A DNA stretch of 64,000 nucleotides from Isoetes taiwanensis (lineage: Eukaryota; Streptophyta; Lycopodiopsida; Isoetales; Isoetaceae): the NCBI GenBank assembly GCA_021234155.1, contig JAJEKV010000055.1, positions 1,729,090 through 1,793,089 of the forward strand, read 5' to 3'. Below, one piece after another: positions 11,096 to 58,915 of the stretch (the stretch's first letter is position 1; each line of letters begins with the position of its first letter). Below the pieces are notes generated by a model. The model saw nothing but the letters and a program-made list of their open reading frames with translations. It had not been told where the DNA came from and did not search any database. A program made the translations under genes and the position numbers.

Positions 11096-13397
11096 TGGGC
11101 TCAAACATGTCACCTAGGCTCCAACATACCACCTATGCTCAAAGATGCCAAGGTGGCTCAAACATGCCACATGGGCACCAGCATGCCACCTAGGCTCCAA
11201 CATGCCAAGGTGGCTCAAACATGCCATGTCGGCTCCAAGATGCCACCTAGGCTTCATCATGTCAAGGTGGCTCAAACATGGCAAGGTGGCTCAAACATGC
11301 CACGTGGCTTCAACATGCCACCTAGGCTCCAACATGCAAGGTGGCTCCAACATGCCACCTAGGCTCAAGTATGCCAAGGTGGGTCAAACATGCCACGTGG
11401 GCTCCAACATGCCACCTAGGCTCAAACATGCCAAGGTGGCTCAAAACATGCCACCAAGGCTCCAACATGCCAAGGTGGCTCAAACATGCCACCTAGGCTC
11501 AAACATGCCAAGGTGGCGCAAACATGACAAGGTGGCTCAAACATGCCACGATGGCTCCAACATGCCAAGGTGTCTCAAACATGGCAAGATGGCTCAAACA
11601 TGCCACGTGGCTCCAACATGCCCCCTAGGCTCCAACATGCAAGGTGGCCCAAGCATTCCACTTAGGCTCCAACATGCCACCTAGGATAAAACATGCCAAG
11701 GTGGCTGAAACATGCCACGCGGGCCCCAACATGCCAAGGTGGCTCAAACATGCCATCTAGGCTCCAACATGCCACCTTGGCTAAAACATACCAAAGTGGC
11801 TCAAACATGCCACGCGGGCTCCAACATGCCACCTAGGCTCCAACATGCCAAGGTGGCTCAAACATGCCACGCGGGCTCCAACATGCCAACTAGGTTCCAA
11901 CGTGCCACCTAGGCTCAAACATGCCAAGGTGGCTCAAACATGCCACACAAGCTCCAACATGCTACCTAGGCTCCAACATGCCAAGGTGGCTCAAACATGC
12001 CACCTAGGCTCCAACATGCCACCTAGGCTTCAACATGCCAAGGTGGCTTGAACATTTCAAGGTGGCTCAAATATGCCAGGCGGGCTCCAACATGCCAAGG
12101 TGGTTCAAACATGCCAAGGTGTCTCAAACATGCCAAGGTGGCTCAAACATGCCACTAGGCTCCAACATGCCATCTAGGTGCAAACATGCTAAGTTGGCTC
12201 AAACATGCCAAGGTGGCTCAAACATGCCACGCAGGCTCCGACAAGCCATCTAGGCTCCAACATGCCAAGGTGGCTCAAACATGTCACCTAGGCTCCAACA
12301 TGACATGTAGGCTCAAACATGCCAAGGTGGCTCAAACATGCCACGCGGGCTCCCTAGGCTCCAACATGCCATGTCGGCTCCAAAATGCCACCTACGCTCA
12401 AACATGCCACGTGGACTCCAACATGCCATTAGGCTCCTGCACGCCACCTAGGCTCCAAAATGCCACCCAACATGACAAGGTGGCTCAAACATGCCACGCG
12501 GGCTCCAACATGCCACCTAGGCTCAAACATGCCAAGGTGGCCTCAAACATGCCACCTAGTCTCAAACATGCCACCTAGATTCCTACATGCCACCTAGGCT
12601 CAAACATGCCAAGGTGGCTCAAACATGCCACGTGGGCTCCAACATGCCAAATAGACTCCAACATGCCAAGGTGGTTCAAACATGTCGAGGTGGCTCAAGT
12701 ATACCACAAGGGCTCCAACATGCCACCTAGGCTCAAACATGCCAAGGTGGCTCAAACATGACACGCAGGCACCAACATGCCACCTAGGTTCCAACATGCC
12801 AAGGTGGCTCAAGCATGCCACCTAGGCTCCAACATGCCACCTAGACTCCAACATGCCACCTAGGCTCCAACTTACCACCTAGGTTCAAATATGCCAAGGT
12901 GGCTCAAACATGCCACATGGGCCCAAACATGCCACTAGGCTCTAACATGCCAATGTGGCTCAAACATGCCAAGATGGCTCAAACACGCCACCCAGTGCTC
13001 CAACATGCCACTTAGGCTCAAACATGCCACATGTCCTCCAACATGCCACATAGGCTCAAACATGCCAAGGTGGCTCAAACATGCCAAGATGGCTCAAACA
13101 AGCCACCTAGGCTCAAAACATGTCACCTTGGCTCCAACATTCCACTTATCCAACATGCCACCTAGGCTCCAACATGCCAAGGTGGCTCAAACATGCCATG
13201 CAGGCTCCAACATGTCACCTAGGATCAAACATGCCAAGATGGCTCCAGCACGCCACCTAGGCTCCAACATGCCAAGATGGCTCAAACATGTCATCTAGAC
13301 TCCAACATGCCACCTTGGCTTTAACATGCCACCTAGGCTCAAACATGCCAACGTGGCTCAAACATGCCATGTGGGCTCCAACATGCCGCGTGGGCAT
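11096..13397 (+). repeat. 19-bp minisatellite, right array
   Basis: About 2.3 kb of the same 19-bp family as 5665-9078 and in the same orientation, somewhat more diverged, with more CCACGCGGG-type units and several truncated units (for example near 12350 and 13145). It ends at a CCGCGTGGGC unit followed by unrelated AT-rich DNA. The reading frames across it, up to 179 residues, are repeat artefacts. Confidence 0.96.
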
Positions 13398-44275: not shown

Positions 44276-44304
44276 GGACACTAGTAGAGATAACCCTTGT
44301 TTGT

Positions 44305-44620
44305 CACGGTTTTTGTCACGCAAAATACACTATATTATTATATTATTAGTGTCGTGACAAATAACTTTTCTCACTCGTGACAAACATGAAACCACTTGTC
44401 ACGCGTGATAAATAAATATATTTGTCACGCGTGACAGAATGTTAGTTTGTCACGCGTGATAAATAAATATATTTGTCACGCGTAACAAATGTTAGTTTGT
44501 CACGCGTGATAAATAATTATATTTGTCACGCATGACAAATCTTAGTTTGTCACGCGTGATAAAACCTTTACTTTTGTCACGCCTGCCAATTTTACTTTTG
44601 TCACGCGTGACAAACTGATA
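44305..44620. repeat. CACTA left subterminal repeat array
   Basis: About a dozen copies of TTGTCACGCGTGAYAAA, most separated by AT-rich spacers such as TAAATAATTATA. In CACTA elements such arrays bind the element's regulatory TNPA-like protein; that role here is inferred from position. Confidence 0.85.
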
Positions 44621-44871
44621 TTTAATAATATTTATTTATTTGATTTTTTTCTACATAATATTTTTTTATAATTTATTAATATTATTATATATAAGTTTTG
44701 CTACCTGTGGCAAATTGTATATGGAAAAAAAAAAAAAGGAAGCTTGGGGCAGCTAATTTTGATTATCCCTGATTGGTTGCAAATTGGCACAAACATAAAA
44801 TGAAATTGATATACATAAAATTTATATAAAGTACATATGCAAGTATACAAAATATAAGTATGCAAAGTCTA

Positions 44872-46074
44872 TCAATACGCACAACTGCCACTGTCTCCAT
44901 CCCTGTCATCATGGCGTCGAGACATATCGTCCCCCTCTACTCCATCTCCCTGAAAAAATGGTCTGTCATCTGGGACATCGATGTCATAGTCTTCCTCTGC
45001 CAAATTCTGGGCCTCGCCTTCTTGGCGCATCCGTACAATCCTCTACAAAAAATAAGTAGCATTAGAAACTATGTTGATCAGTGGTATCTTCATTGGATTC
45101 AAGTTAGTTACTGACCTCTCTATCGGCTTCATGAAGTGGCCATATGTTCAGTCCTGCCATGTACAACTCAAAGTTAGAACGTGACATATATTTTCTTACA
45201 TCACACTGGTCCTGAGTGGGCGCAAATCCGTATTGCGCATACTAAAAATAAAGTAGCAGTTAGTATGCAAAACGCGAAAGCCTCATATAAGACTATAGGC
45301 CATTACAAAAAAATCAAATACTTACAAACTTAGCCTCGAATCCTGATTGGCCAGAACTACCAAAACGATGACCTGCTTTGTTTCTTTGTGCAATTCTCGC
45401 CTTTGCACATGTAGAAAGTCTTAAAAGAGAGAATAAAATATTGCAAGCTAAAATAAAGTAAACTTACGATGTGGCTTCCTTCTGCTGCGTATGTGCATGC
45501 AGTTACGCATCATCTGCCGCGATCTCTCGAAGGGCCCACTCCCATGCTTCGTCAGGGATACGTTTTCGCTTAGAAGTTCTCTCTTCTAGATGATGCTTAA
45601 CCTCTTTCTTCAGCTTAGAGCGATGGCTTCTGGAAAAAATAAGAGCATTAATACAATAAGAATTTTAATGAAGATGGTTGAAATTTAATAAAATTGAAGA
45701 CAATAATAACACACCTATGGATCTCAGATAACTTGTGCCGTATAAAGGACTCCGAGACATCCCCATGTATTTTCTTAACCTCACGTATCACCCGCATTTA
45801 AGTATGAGATACAAACGCTTTTAATTTAGTACAAAGAGAGTGATTGTTGTAAGAAATGATGAGTAAAGCATTTCACCAGCTCAATGTGCTCTTTCATTTT
45901 CTTGTGAGGTGCTTTCCAATAAAAATGATCGTGCGCTATATTTTTTATAGTCCTGCGTAAGGCACTATCTCCTGGTCCAAACTTTGGCTTGCCCATCGGG
46001 CTTATCACCAAAGCAGGTACATCTGGTGAGCCCTCTAAGATCCTACAGCCTGCAGGATACTTAAATATCCCCAC
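44872..46074 (-). pseudogene. Spliced Transposase_24-like (En/Spm accessory) gene with an in-frame stop
   Basis: Exons read on the minus strand: 46074-45877 (VGIFKYPAGC, then ISPMGKPKFGPGDSALRRTI), about 45797-45715 (MRVIREVKKIHGDVSESF), 45629-45468 (SHRSKLKKEVKHHLEER, IPDEAWEWALREIAADDA), 45419-45326 (CAKARIAQRNKAGHRFGSSG), 45241-45116 (YAQYGFAPTQ, WPLHEADRE), 45042-44872 (acidic C-terminus, stop). Phases agree and most borders are GT..AG. The ISPxGxxxFxP block and the later NRxKxxHxxGS-like block are those of the plant Transposase_24 family. Lesions: an in-frame TAA at 45503-45505 and no clear acceptor before the second exon. The role in transposition is inferred from the family and location. 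Confidence 0.65.
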
Positions 46075-46462
46075 CTGCAAGTCAAACATCTTAGTTTATA
46101 TTTTAAATTATTATGGAAGTGTGAAAAATAGTTACCTGCACTTCTTCAAAGTCTCTAACCACTAGTTGCCAAGTAAGCACAACAATAAGTAGGAGCACAT
46201 AAATTGAATAAATAAAGAAACGAAAAATGAAAGAAACCTAATGCACTTTGAATAGCATTAAATGTTGCACATAGAATCTAAGCATTACACTTGATGGTGT
46301 TAAGTATGCACAACATTAATATGAGTACATGATTGAAAAAAAAAAGCAAAGAAAAATGAAACAAGAACAAAGATTCAGATTTAATAAGATAAGTATCATT
46401 AATATCGAGTAGCGATTTATTAAAAATAAAAGTTTGTTTTAAATAACTAAAAGTTTTTATCT

Positions 46463-46950
46463 CTACAAAAACCGATCAGGTACAGTCTCATGGAATTCAT
46501 AGTCCAAAAATAACTCGTCGACCTCTCTAAGGCTCTTGATAGCAACAACCATAACAAAGTGCTTACACATTCTTGTCATGAACTCCTCGCGATCATTACT
46601 TCTTTCTTCAAACATGCAATTGATGATATTTTTATTGGCACCACAGCTGTTGATCAGCCCCGCTATATTGCCATGTTCTTCCACACGACCATCAATGTAA
46701 GATCTCTTATCCTCATTGTACTCTGATCTCATTTCCATAGTGCGTGCATTACTGTTGCAACCGTATACCATCATAGAAAATGAATAATATGTTAATGCTT
46801 CCCACTTGGATGCACTATACTCTGGACCTCCATAGATCATCAAAGGGACAACTGAATTATACCCAACACGATGATTTTGGGCAATGAATAATCCCCTTCG
46901 GATCCGGGGGCGTGAGATCGCTTTATTACATATCGACGACCCCAATAAGT
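46463..46950 (-). pseudogene. SET-like domain frame inside the CACTA element
   Basis: SET domains are protein-lysine methyltransferases. The 160-residue frame reads RGLFIAQNHRVGYNSVVPL then MIYGG (the opening GxGLFA..xxG...Y.G strands), EEHGNIAGLINSCGANKNI (compare the GNxxRFINHSCxPN cofactor motif, here one residue shorter and without the His), and CKHFVMVVAIKSL then DELFLDYEF (compare I..GEELxxDYG, with Glu for Gly). The match in order is good but the catalytic motifs are altered. There is no ATG at its start. Its N-terminal extension lies in another frame (46840-47250), so it is frameshifted or spliced. An alternative is an unrelated element-specific protein. Confidence 0.5.
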
Positions 46951-47250
46951 GAATATGTCACCTAAGTTGGGCAATGGACCATTAAATAGACCTAATCTTC
47001 GTCGATCTACAGGTTTTAATAATCTCTCAATGTGATGCGGCATTGGTAAATCAGGTATGTCACACCCCACAACTTGGTAACTACTTCCACCATGTACATT
47101 TATGTCGCTTGATCCACGGGTCCTATAGTGGGATGCACTTTGTGCAGAATCTATTTCATCATCATCTCCAACATGTCTCCAAACTCCCCTCGAAAAATTG
47201 ATTATGCCTCGTTGTGTTGAGTTCTCGCTTAACCATAGAATGCTTTTCAA
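46840..47250 (-). pseudogene. Frame upstream of the SET-like domain in the CACTA element
   Basis: A 136-residue frame with PHHIERLLKPVDRRRLGLF and NLGDIFTYWGRRYVIK, overlapping the start of the SET-like frame in a different phase by about 100 bp. The most economical reading is one protein interrupted by a frameshift near 46920. I recognise no domain in it. Confidence 0.4.
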
Positions 47251-47694
47251 ATAAAAGACTATGTATTAACTAAAAATACAACTATTTACCCCAACATGCT
47301 AGATAATAAAATAAACCTATAACAAATCAAATCATTTACTAACTTTTGTCCATCTAGTGGTGTTGGGTTGTAGGCACACCAAAACGCCTACAAAAGCCTT
47401 GAAGCCCCCAATAAGTACCATTTGATTTGCAAATGCCGCTCAATCACCAGTAGCAACCGGTTTGTCTTTGCCCCACACATGACCGACACCAACAAGGTTC
47501 AAACTCACCAAAGATGGTGTCCTCGGCGATGTCTCAAATTTGCTGGTTGGGAGCAAACACATCTATCAACTCTTTTTATCCTCCTCCTCCTAGTACTAGG
47601 AGGAAGATTGCTAAAAAGGTTGGGATCCATACCAAGCGCCCAACAGAGCGCCTAAGAGAAGAGGAGCATAAACAGATTTAAAATAAACGGCTAT

Positions 47695-48055
47695 ATTATT
47701 TGTCACGCGTGACAAAAATTTGTCACGCGTGACAAAAGCTACGAAGGTTTTGTCACGCATGACAAATAATATAGCCGTTTATTTGTCACGCATAACAACT
47801 AATATAGCCTTTGTCACGCATGACAAAAATTTGTCACCCGTGACAAACTTTTGTCACGCGTGATAAAGGCTATAAACATTTGTCACGCATGACAAATATT
47901 TGTCACGCGTGTCAAATTTTAGTCTTTTGTCACGGTTTTTGAGTTTGAATTCTTGTCACGAGTTGCAAAAAAAGATTTGCCTTTGTCACGAGTGGCAAAG
48001 TTAAAATGCGTGACAAACTTTATTGGCGTGACAAATTTGCCCGTGACAAAAGACC
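47695..48055. repeat. CACTA right subterminal repeat array
   Basis: About fifteen copies of TTGTCACGCRTGACAAA-type palindromes, including tandem pairs. It mirrors the left array at 44305-44620. Near the end the palindromes degrade to half-sites (GTCACGAGTKGCAAA). Confidence 0.85.
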
Positions 48056-48074
48056 CTTGTGCCTTGTAGTGGGA

Positions 48075-56694: not shown

Positions 56695-57252
56695 TTACAT
56701 TATAGTGCAAAGGGCAGAGATATCAGTAAGGACGCTAGTGGCTACAGACTTGGCTCCCCATACTAGCAATTCCTTAGAGGGATCAGAAGATGAGATATTA
56801 TACTGTATCACAGCCTGAGAGTTGCTAGAGGACGATCTATTATACAGTACTGTAGATTGGGAGCTGTCAGAAGATGTGCCACTTCCATAAGATAAAAGTG
56901 CCCCATGAGGCCTCGTGCGACACTGATCGCACTCGTTGGGGTTGAACAAAATATACTTGCAGTCTTTACAAAATCGTTCGGTCTTCATGATGAAGTAGAG
57001 TGTAATACACTCCTCAAAATCCAACATCTCATCTCTGTTCCTATCCAGGATGTTAAAGTAGCTCAGAATCTGATCTCTCATATGTTGTTCTACCAAAGCT
57101 GCGTAGAGCTCATTCCTAGTTATTCCACCATCATTGTTCTTATCCAAGGACTCAAACAGGTATTTGCACTCTTTCTTCTGTGCCGCTGGAAGGTCATTGT
57201 AGAAATATTGTGCCCTTTTGTGGAGGGCATCTAGTTTTGACATATTTGCCAT
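56695..57252 (-). CDS. EF-hand calcium-binding protein with a four-cysteine zinc-ribbon-like motif, 185 aa
   Basis: A single unbroken frame from ATG (57252) to TAA (56695). An N-terminal helical region (MANMSKLDALHKRAQYFY) is followed by EF-hand 1, FESLDKNNDGGITRNEL (about residues 33-49, loop residues D, N, D, G, E in place), and EF-hand 2, FNILDRNRDEMLDFEEC (about 65-81, usable D, N, D, D, E ligands). Then comes ERFCKDCKYILFNPNECDQC (about 91-110), two CxxC pairs likely to bind zinc. The C-terminus is Ser-rich, then hydrophobic. No signal peptide or membrane segment is clear. It is probably a calcium-responsive protein; I do not recognise a named gene. It lies in a repeated unit and its partner at 22765-23338 is broken, so expression is uncertain. 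Confidence 0.7.
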   Translation of the reverse strand: MANMSKLDALHKRAQYFYNDLPAAQKKECKYLFESLDKNNDGGITRNELYAALVEQHMRDQILSYFNILDRNRDEMLDFEECITLYFIMKTERFCKDCKYILFNPNECDQCRTRPHGALLSYGSGTSSDSSQSTVLYNRSSSSNSQAVIQYNISSSDPSKELLVWGAKSVATSVLTDISALCTIM

Positions 57253-58915
57253 ATCCTTCTTTAAGAAAAAGAAAGCAACCCAAATCTACCTATGATGCTT
57301 CTCACAAGTCTTCTCCTTTTGTTCGGCAAGCTGGCTAAATACAGGAAATTGAATAGGAGATTTTTCCTTGCATATTTCTTAAAGACATTAATTGCTTGTA
57401 AGTCATGGCGTAGTTTCTGAGTACTTACGCACTCAGCCTTCTTTCTTCTCTGCCATTGATAGTTCCTCGTAGAAGTATTGTGCCCATTTGTGAAGGTTAT
57501 CTATTTCTGCCATCCAATCAAAATCTCCCTATGAATATTCACATACTTTTCCTTTGTTGTTTGTGATGGCTAAAAACAAAAAATTGAAGAGGAATTTTTT
57601 CCTTGGGCCTTCGGAGAATGCAAGTAGCAGGATAATCAGCATATTTTTTAGAAAATTATAATTGCTTGTAAGGCATGGTGTAGTTTCAAGGTACTTATGC
57701 ATTTTCAAAGTAGACCCCATGTCTTCGAGTGAGAAAGATTCAAACTTGGCATTTTTGTTATGAAGGCTTTAACAAGTTAGAATCTAGCTTTGCTTTAAAG
57801 ACCATTGTCGTCTTTTTTAAAGACGTTAGACTAGACTTCATTTTCTTTGCTACCACCTATGCTTTAAAGACAATTGGCATTGTTTTAATGATTTTAAACA
57901 TGACTTCAATTTCTTTCCTACCAAGTGATTTTTTCTTGAACATGGAGATTTCATTTTGTAGTTCAAACATTGGACATTTTCTTGCATATGGAAACTTGTC
58001 AGTTGCAATTGTATGGTTTAAAAATCAGTGGGATTAAGAAATAGCAGTTGTCAACTCGATGCAAATGGAATGCAGTTAAATATGGATAATGCAGAAAAAA
58101 AAAATGATGCCCCGTGGTTGATTGAGGGACTTAAGTGTTTATGTTTCTTGTCTTTTTCAGGCAACGTGATGCGTCAATAAGACCCAAGTGTGGCATTTGT
58201 TATTTAGTGCATTCGAGCTTCAATCTAGTCTCAATTAGCAGACTCTTTTTTGATTTGGTAGATATGATTATCATAAACAAATCTATTAAGAAGATGCACA
58301 TGTACCAAAACGACTCATGATATTAAAATTTCAAGTGCAAATAGGCAAACAATACAGTTACAGTGGCATGCTTCCATATAATAACTCAAAATTCATTAAT
58401 AAGATGGAAAATAGATTAGTATATTGTCAGTAAATGAAGTTGGATGGTGTTTTTCCAAACTTAAAATTATATTTAGAAAGCCCCTCCCTCTCCAACCGGT
58501 TAAAAACCCCCTCCTTTTTGTTACCAAGCTGTAAAAGCAGGCTTGGGGCAGGGGTGGGGGGAGAAGGGTTTTGAGTAATGGGATGGCAAATGAAGATATT
58601 TTGAATATAGATGTTGTAGTGAGAATAAGAGGTCATAAATAAGTAGAAGACAATTGTCTTGGTCGCATAAATAAATTGAGGATAAAATATATATTGTCTT
58701 CGTGGCCATTTAAGTTGTGAGACATGTGTGTCCATTGAGTGGCACAAAGGCACACCAAGAAACTTTGACAAAGTCATGCTTAATAGACATTGTGTGGAGT
58801 TGTTGTAAGTCATAATCTCTTTCCTTTGTATTATGCATTTGCATGCGGATCATTACATGGCGTTATTGTAAAGTCATAAGTTATTGCTATTAATTGTGCA
58901 TTTGCGCGTAGAGTT

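What the first reader, a model, noticed from the sequence alone, without database searches (positions are those of the whole stretch)
44279..48071. CACTA transposon carrying a SET-like frame and a spliced Transposase_24-like gene
A complete element (CACTA ends, GGA duplication) lacks the usual TNP2 transposase but has a multi-exon accessory gene with consistent phases and a frame whose motif order fits a SET methyltransferase domain. A chromatin-modifying domain inside a DNA transposon would be notable, either as captured host sequence or as an element-encoded counter-silencing factor.
Basis: partly seen in the sequence, partly recalled or inferred. Interest (0 to 1): 0.85.

Follow-up and report, generated by a model that had tools for sequence, protein, structure and literature searches.

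The report
SET-domain exon inside CACTA transposase gene
The window holds a shortened copy of a plant jumping gene whose full-length relatives carry, next to the transposase, a conserved exon that looks like a histone-modifying (SET) enzyme, suggesting that these elements may encode their own chromatin modifier.

Summary
The SET call holds. Window 44279-48071 is a CACTA element (GGA duplications) with an internal deletion. Relatives in the same genome match both halves but stop at one junction; the two read in full span 15.4 and 18.3 kb and contain a TNP2 transposase. There the SET region is one 268-aa frame; the window copy has a 1-nt frameshift.

Pfam SET reaches its cut-off in 7 of 7 frames scanned, from six divergent lineages. 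Capped searches listed about 150 SET matches each, identity down to 38%. Exon 1 lies upstream at 31 of 38 distinct places read, TNP2 downstream at 27 of 38.

Between the two closest families SET is constrained (dN/dS about 0.2, dS about 1), so it is no recent passenger. The SET exon lies in what looks like intron 1 of the TNP2 gene, with phase-0 sites for both, so one N-terminal module could serve two proteins. Counter-silencing is my leading guess, untested. One motif residue is altered and a single-sequence fold failed.

Transposase_24 is not supported. Assembly size points to the lycophyte Isoetes taiwanensis. SET-carrying Harbinger and MuDR elements are reported from oomycetes; my searches of open-access papers showed no SET-carrying CACTA.

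The parts
44276..44278 (.). GGA target-site duplication, left
   Evidence: equals 48072-48074
48072..48074 (.). GGA target-site duplication, right
44279..48071 (-). CACTA element, internal-deletion derivative (coding sense is the minus strand)
   Evidence: ends and duplications; copies
44364..44614 (.). left subterminal repeats (TTTGTCACGCGTGACAAA type)
   Evidence: family D1
47696..48017 (.). right subterminal repeats, same motif
   Evidence: family D1
47344..47630 (-). exon 1 (C-W-C-x2-C module), decayed in this copy; resemblance to Transpos_assoc is below cut-off
   Evidence: donor GTTAGT at 47343
46463..47223 (-). SET exon, own stop codon at its end; 1-nt deletion near 46900
46154..46164 (.). 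deletion junction: TNP2 and the 5' part of the left gene are missing here compared with full copies
45877..46074 (-). left gene, exon a
45715..45791 (-). left gene, exon b (acceptor GG in this copy)
45468..45629 (-). left gene, exon c (holds an in-frame stop in this copy)
45326..45419 (-). left gene, exon d
45116..45241 (-). left gene, exon e
44872..45042 (-). left gene, last exon

Best explanation
The window element is a broken, internally deleted copy of a CACTA lineage that encodes, besides TNP2 and a second accessory gene, a SET-domain protein. Shown: the SET exon lies between a small cysteine-rich first exon and the TNP2 exons in several divergent families, ends with its own stop shortly after the conserved SET tyrosine, and is under purifying selection. 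Inferred: exon 1 is spliced either to the SET exon or to the TNP2 exons, giving an exon-1-SET protein and an exon-1-transposase that share one module, perhaps for targeting. Inferred with less certainty: the exon-1-SET protein is brought to the element's own repeats and methylates a lysine on histones or on an associated protein, keeping the element expressed against host silencing.
For: SET matches Pfam at or above its cut-off in 7 of 7 frames scanned, best E 9.5e-7. Seven aligned frames share 57 invariant positions, including the SET signatures GxGL, YxG, HGNxA..IN and GxEL...Y. The full copy c952 carries TNP2 (Transposase_21 E 8.5e-29, DUF4218 2.4e-19; DUF4216 at 27.2 bits is under its cut-off of 30.6) downstream of one 268-aa SET frame; c1077 has the same order by tblastn (L009). 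Exon 1 upstream at 31 of 38 and TNP2 downstream at 27 of 38 distinct places, both at 23. SET pN/pS between L012 and L050 0.31 (bootstrap 0.24-0.40), dN/dS 0.20, near TNP2 (0.16) and exon 1 (0.25). Within the window's family, changes shared by two or more copies in the SET core show omega about 0.50 (p 0.007), while single-copy changes show no constraint. Phase-0 donor and acceptors in three families. In a deep family (L065) an exon-1-like motif runs in one open frame through the sequence read, and one search gives that place a 431-aa frame that reaches SET.
Against: Pfam scores are only just above cut-off, the whole-genome PF00856 scan does not list the window's own frame (72 rows, 150 of 521 scored), and PDB sequence searches gave no significant SET match. 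The His of the canonical NHS motif (motif recalled) is Ser in 7 of 7 frames. The one AlphaFold job failed (single sequence, pLDDT 33). Only 3 of 22 copies of the window's family have an uninterrupted SET exon. Several AG sites in different phases precede or begin each SET frame, so the chosen acceptors are a judgement, and the exon-1 donor of one copy (L049) is out of phase. No transcript, splicing, enzymatic or chromatin data. Exon 1 matches Transpos_assoc far below cut-off in 2 of 6 frames and not at all in 4.
Confidence: 0.5

Rival explanations
1. The SET-fold protein is a non-catalytic module: it keeps the fold and binds nucleosomes, histone tails or the transposase, helping target choice or complex assembly, without methylating anything.
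For: The His of NHS is Ser and the Glu of YxGE is Pro in 7 of 7 frames (canonical letters recalled). Constraint alone does not require catalysis.
Against: GxG, YxG, the Asn at the NHS position and the C-terminal Tyr are invariant in 7 of 7 frames, as SAM binding and catalysis would require.
Confidence: 0.28
2. The SET protein represses its own element (self-regulation of copy number), for example by depositing a repressive mark at the ends.
For: Many SET enzymes act on H3K9 or H3K27 (established knowledge). SETMAR, a SET protein with a transposon-derived DNA-binding domain, is reported to bind transposon ends with stronger repression of bound loci (highlights seen in the listing, PMC8327481).
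Against: A purely self-repressing gene is expected to be lost by selfish lineages (argument, not a test); here it persists in divergent families.
Confidence: 0.12
3. A captured host gene fragment carried as a passenger, with no function for the element.
For: Plant DNA transposons often carry host fragments (established knowledge), and the window copy is broken.
Against: Same position and direction in divergent families, matching splice phases, dN/dS about 0.2 between the two closest families.
Confidence: 0.05
4. No SET domain: a transposon-specific protein that meets the SET profile by chance.
For: Scores close to cut-off, no significant PDB match; unrelated chains score as well as SET chains in the PDB lists.
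Against: Seven of seven frames scanned, from six lineages, reach the cut-off over the same part of the profile; at least 19 of 72 rows of the whole-genome PF00856 scan lie at transposon SET places, above cut-off (against 37, 64, 82); SET motifs are among the invariant columns; sub-threshold alignments to MLL1 (C-terminal half) and MECOM (N-terminal half) fall in the expected register.
Confidence: 0.05

Closest known systems
SET-carrying DNA transposons of oomycetes (HarbingerS and MuDR families; Kojima and Jurka, Repbase Reports 2014, seen only as cited in the introduction of PMC12730594)
   Same: a DNA transposon that carries a SET histone methyltransferase gene beside its transposase
   Different: other transposase superfamilies and other hosts; whether the SET sequences are related was not tested; here the SET exon lies in an intron-like position of a CACTA TNP2 gene
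Plant CACTA/EnSpm elements with extra domains (PMC8978399, passages read)
   Same: TNP2 with Transposase_21 and DUF4218 (DUF4216 here below cut-off), subterminal repeats, 3-bp duplication, a variable second ORF
   Different: that survey lists Peptidase_C48 and Transposase_24 as the extra domains; 'methyltransferase' and the whole word 'SET' were not found in its main text
EnSpm and other fungal transposons with TET/JBP dioxygenase (PMC12730594, abstract and passages)
   Same: a DNA- or chromatin-modifying enzyme carried by CACTA-type elements, proposed to counter silencing
   Different: different enzyme class and host kingdom
Vandal MuDR elements with an anti-silencing protein (one sentence in PMC12730594)
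   Same: plant transposon with a protein that acts on its own silencing
   Different: not a CACTA element; no relation of that protein to SET is known to me (recalled, not tested)
SETMAR/Metnase (abstract starts in the listings)
   Same: SET domain joined to a transposon-derived DNA-binding module
   Different: a primate gene formed by fusion with Hsmar1; here the combination belongs to multicopy elements

Membership tests
CACTA (En/Spm) superfamily | CACTA...TAGTG termini | tested here: met
   window and both full copies
CACTA (En/Spm) superfamily | 3-bp target-site duplication | tested here: met
   GGA in window, TGG in c952; not matching in c1077 (ACA and CGA): 2 of 3 elements
CACTA (En/Spm) superfamily | subterminal repeats in direct and inverted orientation | tested here: met
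CACTA (En/Spm) superfamily | TNP2 transposase (Transposase_21) | tested here: met
   in full copy c952 by Pfam; absent from the window copy, which has lost that segment
SET domain (PF00856) | profile match at curated cut-off | tested here: met
   7 of 7 frames scanned; the window's own frame exactly at cut-off
SET domain (PF00856) | motifs GxG, YxG, Asn of NHS, C-terminal Tyr | tested here: met
   invariant in 7 of 7 aligned frames; motif names recalled
SET domain (PF00856) | His of the NHS motif | tested here: not met
   Ser in 7 of 7
SET domain (PF00856) | SET fold | tested here: inconclusive
   single-sequence AlphaFold model of the window frame, pLDDT 33; no alignment of relatives was submitted
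SET histone methyltransferases | lysine methyltransferase activity | not testable with these tools
   needs biochemistry
Transposase_24 (PF03004) | profile match of the spliced left gene | tested here: not met
   no match up to E 10 for the two pieces and the joined product; HMMER's filters drop most very weak matches
Transpos_assoc (PF13963), for exon 1 | profile match at cut-off | tested here: not met
   14.2 and 13.7 bits against 27.7 for two exon-1 frames, no match for four others (L064, L050, L046, L065)
SET transposons of oomycetes | Harbinger or MuDR transposase | tested here: not met
   the transposase is TNP2/Transposase_21; relatedness of the SET parts not tested

The most novel reading that the evidence does not exclude
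A deep CACTA lineage of a lycophyte carries a histone methyltransferase as an alternative exon of its transposase gene: one shared N-terminal module directs either the transposase or the SET enzyme to the element's ends, so that mobility and counter-silencing are coupled by splicing.
Probability: 0.3. Interest if true: 0.88.

Novelty: new variant of a known kind. Interest (0 to 1): 0.72.

Why it matters
Plant transposons are controlled largely through histone and DNA methylation, and few cases are known (to me) of an element encoding its own chromatin modifier. A multicopy, selected SET protein inside CACTA elements would make the question whether transposons fight silencing with histone marks directly testable. 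It also means that some SET genes in automated annotation of such a genome may be transposon genes: at least 19 of 72 PF00856 rows in this genome lie at transposon SET places (against 37, 64, 82).

Tried and rejected
Transposase_24 for the left gene: Pfam on the spliced pieces and the joined product gave nothing. SET as a chance match: disfavoured by recurrence in divergent families. Passenger host fragment: disfavoured by dN/dS and position. SET and TNP2 as one polypeptide: not favoured, because the SET exon ends with a stop 10-13 residues after the conserved Tyr in 7 of 7 frames. PDB sequence searches with single frames and with the seven-frame profile: no significant match. NCBIfam: nothing near a cut-off. 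AlphaFold of the window frame failed. Viral and prokaryote collections: no relative confirmed. Origin among host SET genes was not resolved: one search lists host and transposon SET matches together, but no host SET sequence was fetched and no tree was built. PF13963 over the genome: 11 matches 2-5 bits above cut-off, 150 of 198 scored, not cross-checked against SET places. PF03004 over the genome did not complete. In one search, 86 of the 150 SET rows were typed in (number worked out from the printed chance value); the lower-scoring rest were left out. In some searches together, 134 of the 137 TNP2 rows were used; three extra fragment rows were dropped. In one search only 34 SET rows, picked partly because they lie near TNP2 rows, were typed in, so its count is a lower bound and not a random sample. 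(another dN/dS program) failed or saturated for many pairs and gave ratios up to 0.49 for the most distant ones.
Full report
Observation. The element at 44279-48071 has CACTA and TAGTG ends, GGA on both sides and dense palindromic subterminal repeats. Its coding sense is the minus strand. Searching the window's own genome (G000, 1.658 Gb) gave 88 matches, 40 of 464 candidates scored. Apart from the window's own match, no listed match crosses query 1876-1886 by more than about ten bases, and matches to the two sides lie in pairs on one strand with gaps of, for example, 11.6, 14.6, 17.0 and 27.2 kb. Two such elements were read in full: c1077 (15.4 kb) and c952 (18.3 kb). The window copy is therefore an internal-deletion derivative; c1077 holds 11.6 kb more at the junction. 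c952 has matching TGG duplications; c1077 does not match (ACA, CGA).

The SET frame. In the window the frame is split by a 1-nt deletion near 46900. In both full copies it is one 268-aa frame. Pfam SET scores: 22.4 bits for the window frame (cut-off 22.4), 25.2 for L012, 26.2 for L050, 22.8 for L064, 22.8 for L054, 29.6 for L062, 27.3 for L063, that is 7 of 7 scanned at or above cut-off. In the whole-genome PF00856 scan 72 rows are listed (150 of 521 scored); at least 19 lie at transposon SET places, and the window's own frame is not among them. The alignment of seven frames, three of them from the window's family, keeps GxGL, YxGP, IDGR..HGNxA..INS, NC and GxELxxxY; the His of the canonical NHS motif (recalled) is Ser throughout. 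A motif pattern written from these sequences fits 6 of 7; L063 differs at the first Gly. PDB searches were not significant. Sub-threshold alignments to MLL1 (E 0.46) and MECOM (E 1.1) are in the expected register, but unrelated chains scored as well or better in the same lists.

How widespread. With the window frame as query 150 of 1222 candidates were scored, identity 100 to 38%. With L063, 141 of 1954 were scored and 148 matches listed; with the SET part of L054, 150 of 1393 were scored and 151 matches counted. Many frames of 250-330 aa have no stop. Lists overlap and are capped, so no total can be given. Of 54 loci with sequence, 38 are distinct places: exon 1 upstream in 31, TNP2 downstream in 27, both in 23; some loci are too short to show both, and five loci of 6 kb show no TNP2 (L024, L028, L029, L030, L031). 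Of 49 TNP2 rows at 58% identity or more, 35 have a typed SET match within 3.5 kb upstream on the same strand, against about 9e-5 expected per row by chance. Of 85 rows below 58%, 17 do. Whether the others lack SET or fall outside the capped and partly typed lists is open.

Gene anatomy. Exon 1 begins with ATG in L012 and ends at CAG|GTTAGT in phase 0 in L012, L050 and L064; in L049, a damaged copy, the same donor is out of phase. The SET exon has a phase-0 AG acceptor in L012, L050, L064, L062 and L063, chosen among several AG sites. The first TNP2 exon has a phase-0 acceptor in L012, L049 and L064. In L050 and L064 no Met precedes the conserved start of the SET exon. In L065, a deep family, an exon-1-like CWCxxC sequence runs without a stop through the 212 codons read, across a possible 63-nt phase-0 intron picked out by eye; one search lists this place as one 431-aa frame ending in SET. 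I infer one exon-1-SET protein and one exon-1-TNP2 protein. No transcript was seen. Exon 1 resembles Transpos_assoc far below cut-off in 2 of 6 frames and not at all in 4.

Selection. Between L012 and L050: SET dN 0.19, dS 0.99, dN/dS 0.20, pN/pS 0.31 (0.24-0.40); exon 1 dN/dS 0.25; TNP2 0.16. More distant pairs give 0.09 to 0.30 and up to 0.49, with dS above 1.2 or saturated, so these ratios are rough; pN/pS for L012-L062 is 0.64 (0.55-0.77). Within the window's family of 22 copies, changes shared by two or more copies in the SET core are 26 silent, 33 replacement and 2 stop against 16.9, 42.7 and 1.5 expected (p 0.007); the N-terminal part alone shows no signal (p 0.36); exon 1 gives p 0.026. 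Single-copy changes show no constraint, with even fewer silent changes than expected (44 against 58.6 over the whole exon). This fits a gene under selection while the elements move, decaying after insertion. 3 of 22 copies have an uninterrupted SET exon.

The left gene. Six exons in consistent phase; in the window one acceptor is GG and exon c holds an in-frame stop. Mapped to the two full copies, acceptors are AG in 12 of 12 and donors GT in 8 of 8 mapped internal ones, exon a's donor not being mapped in either; both copies hold frame lesions in this gene. Pfam finds no Transposase_24.

Host. G000 has 1,658,258,908 bases in 1110 contigs. The Isoetes taiwanensis assembly is reported as 1658.30 Mb in 204 scaffolds plus 909 contigs (PMC8566536, passages read). 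This is a strong but indirect identification; 'CACTA' does not occur in that paper's main text.

Mechanism. Most likely the SET protein acts on the element's own chromatin. Counter-silencing is the reading I rank first, by analogy with Vandal and TET/JBP-bearing elements (passages of PMC12730594). A non-catalytic role is the main rival because of the altered motif.

Literature. Ten searches of the open-access library showed no CACTA element with a SET domain in titles or abstract starts. Of the 22 papers holding 'CACTA', 'SET domain' and 'transposon' I opened passages of four: PMC12730594, which mentions SET genes in HarbingerS and MuDR families of Phytophthora, and PMC8616336, PMC5745447 and PMC2874221, whose passages describe none (in PMC5745447 the terms were not in the text held). 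The CACTA papers PMC8978399, PMC4158355 and PMC2613891 (passages) do not hold 'methyltransferase'. The other 18 of the 22 were not opened; subscription journals and Repbase Reports were not searchable. Earlier description cannot be excluded.

Noticed in passing
L054 (G000:C1042:13842218-13845667): A SET frame 57-66% identical to the SET frames of the window, L050 and L064 lineages (38-40% to L062 and L063) sits at the C-terminus of one uninterrupted 831-aa frame with a long N-terminal part without Pfam match; no TNP2 or exon 1 found within the fetched flanks. The N-terminal part gives 27 matching stretches in the genome, its own included. Possibly a fusion or domesticated gene.
   Followed up: partly
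window 56695-57285 (-): Open frame of 196 aa with EF-hand matches in Pfam (E 9.6e-10), possibly a host calcium-binding protein gene.
   Followed up: partly
window 11118-11684 (+): Open frame of 188 aa built of short repeated units (AQTCHLGSNMPRWLKH type); no Pfam match.
   Followed up: no
G000 C1038:8127060, C1025:7197090 and 9 further places: 11 recognisable Transpos_assoc exons, 7 of them with 94-aa open frames, against the diverged exon 1 of the SET-bearing lineage: other CACTA lineages may coexist.
   Followed up: no
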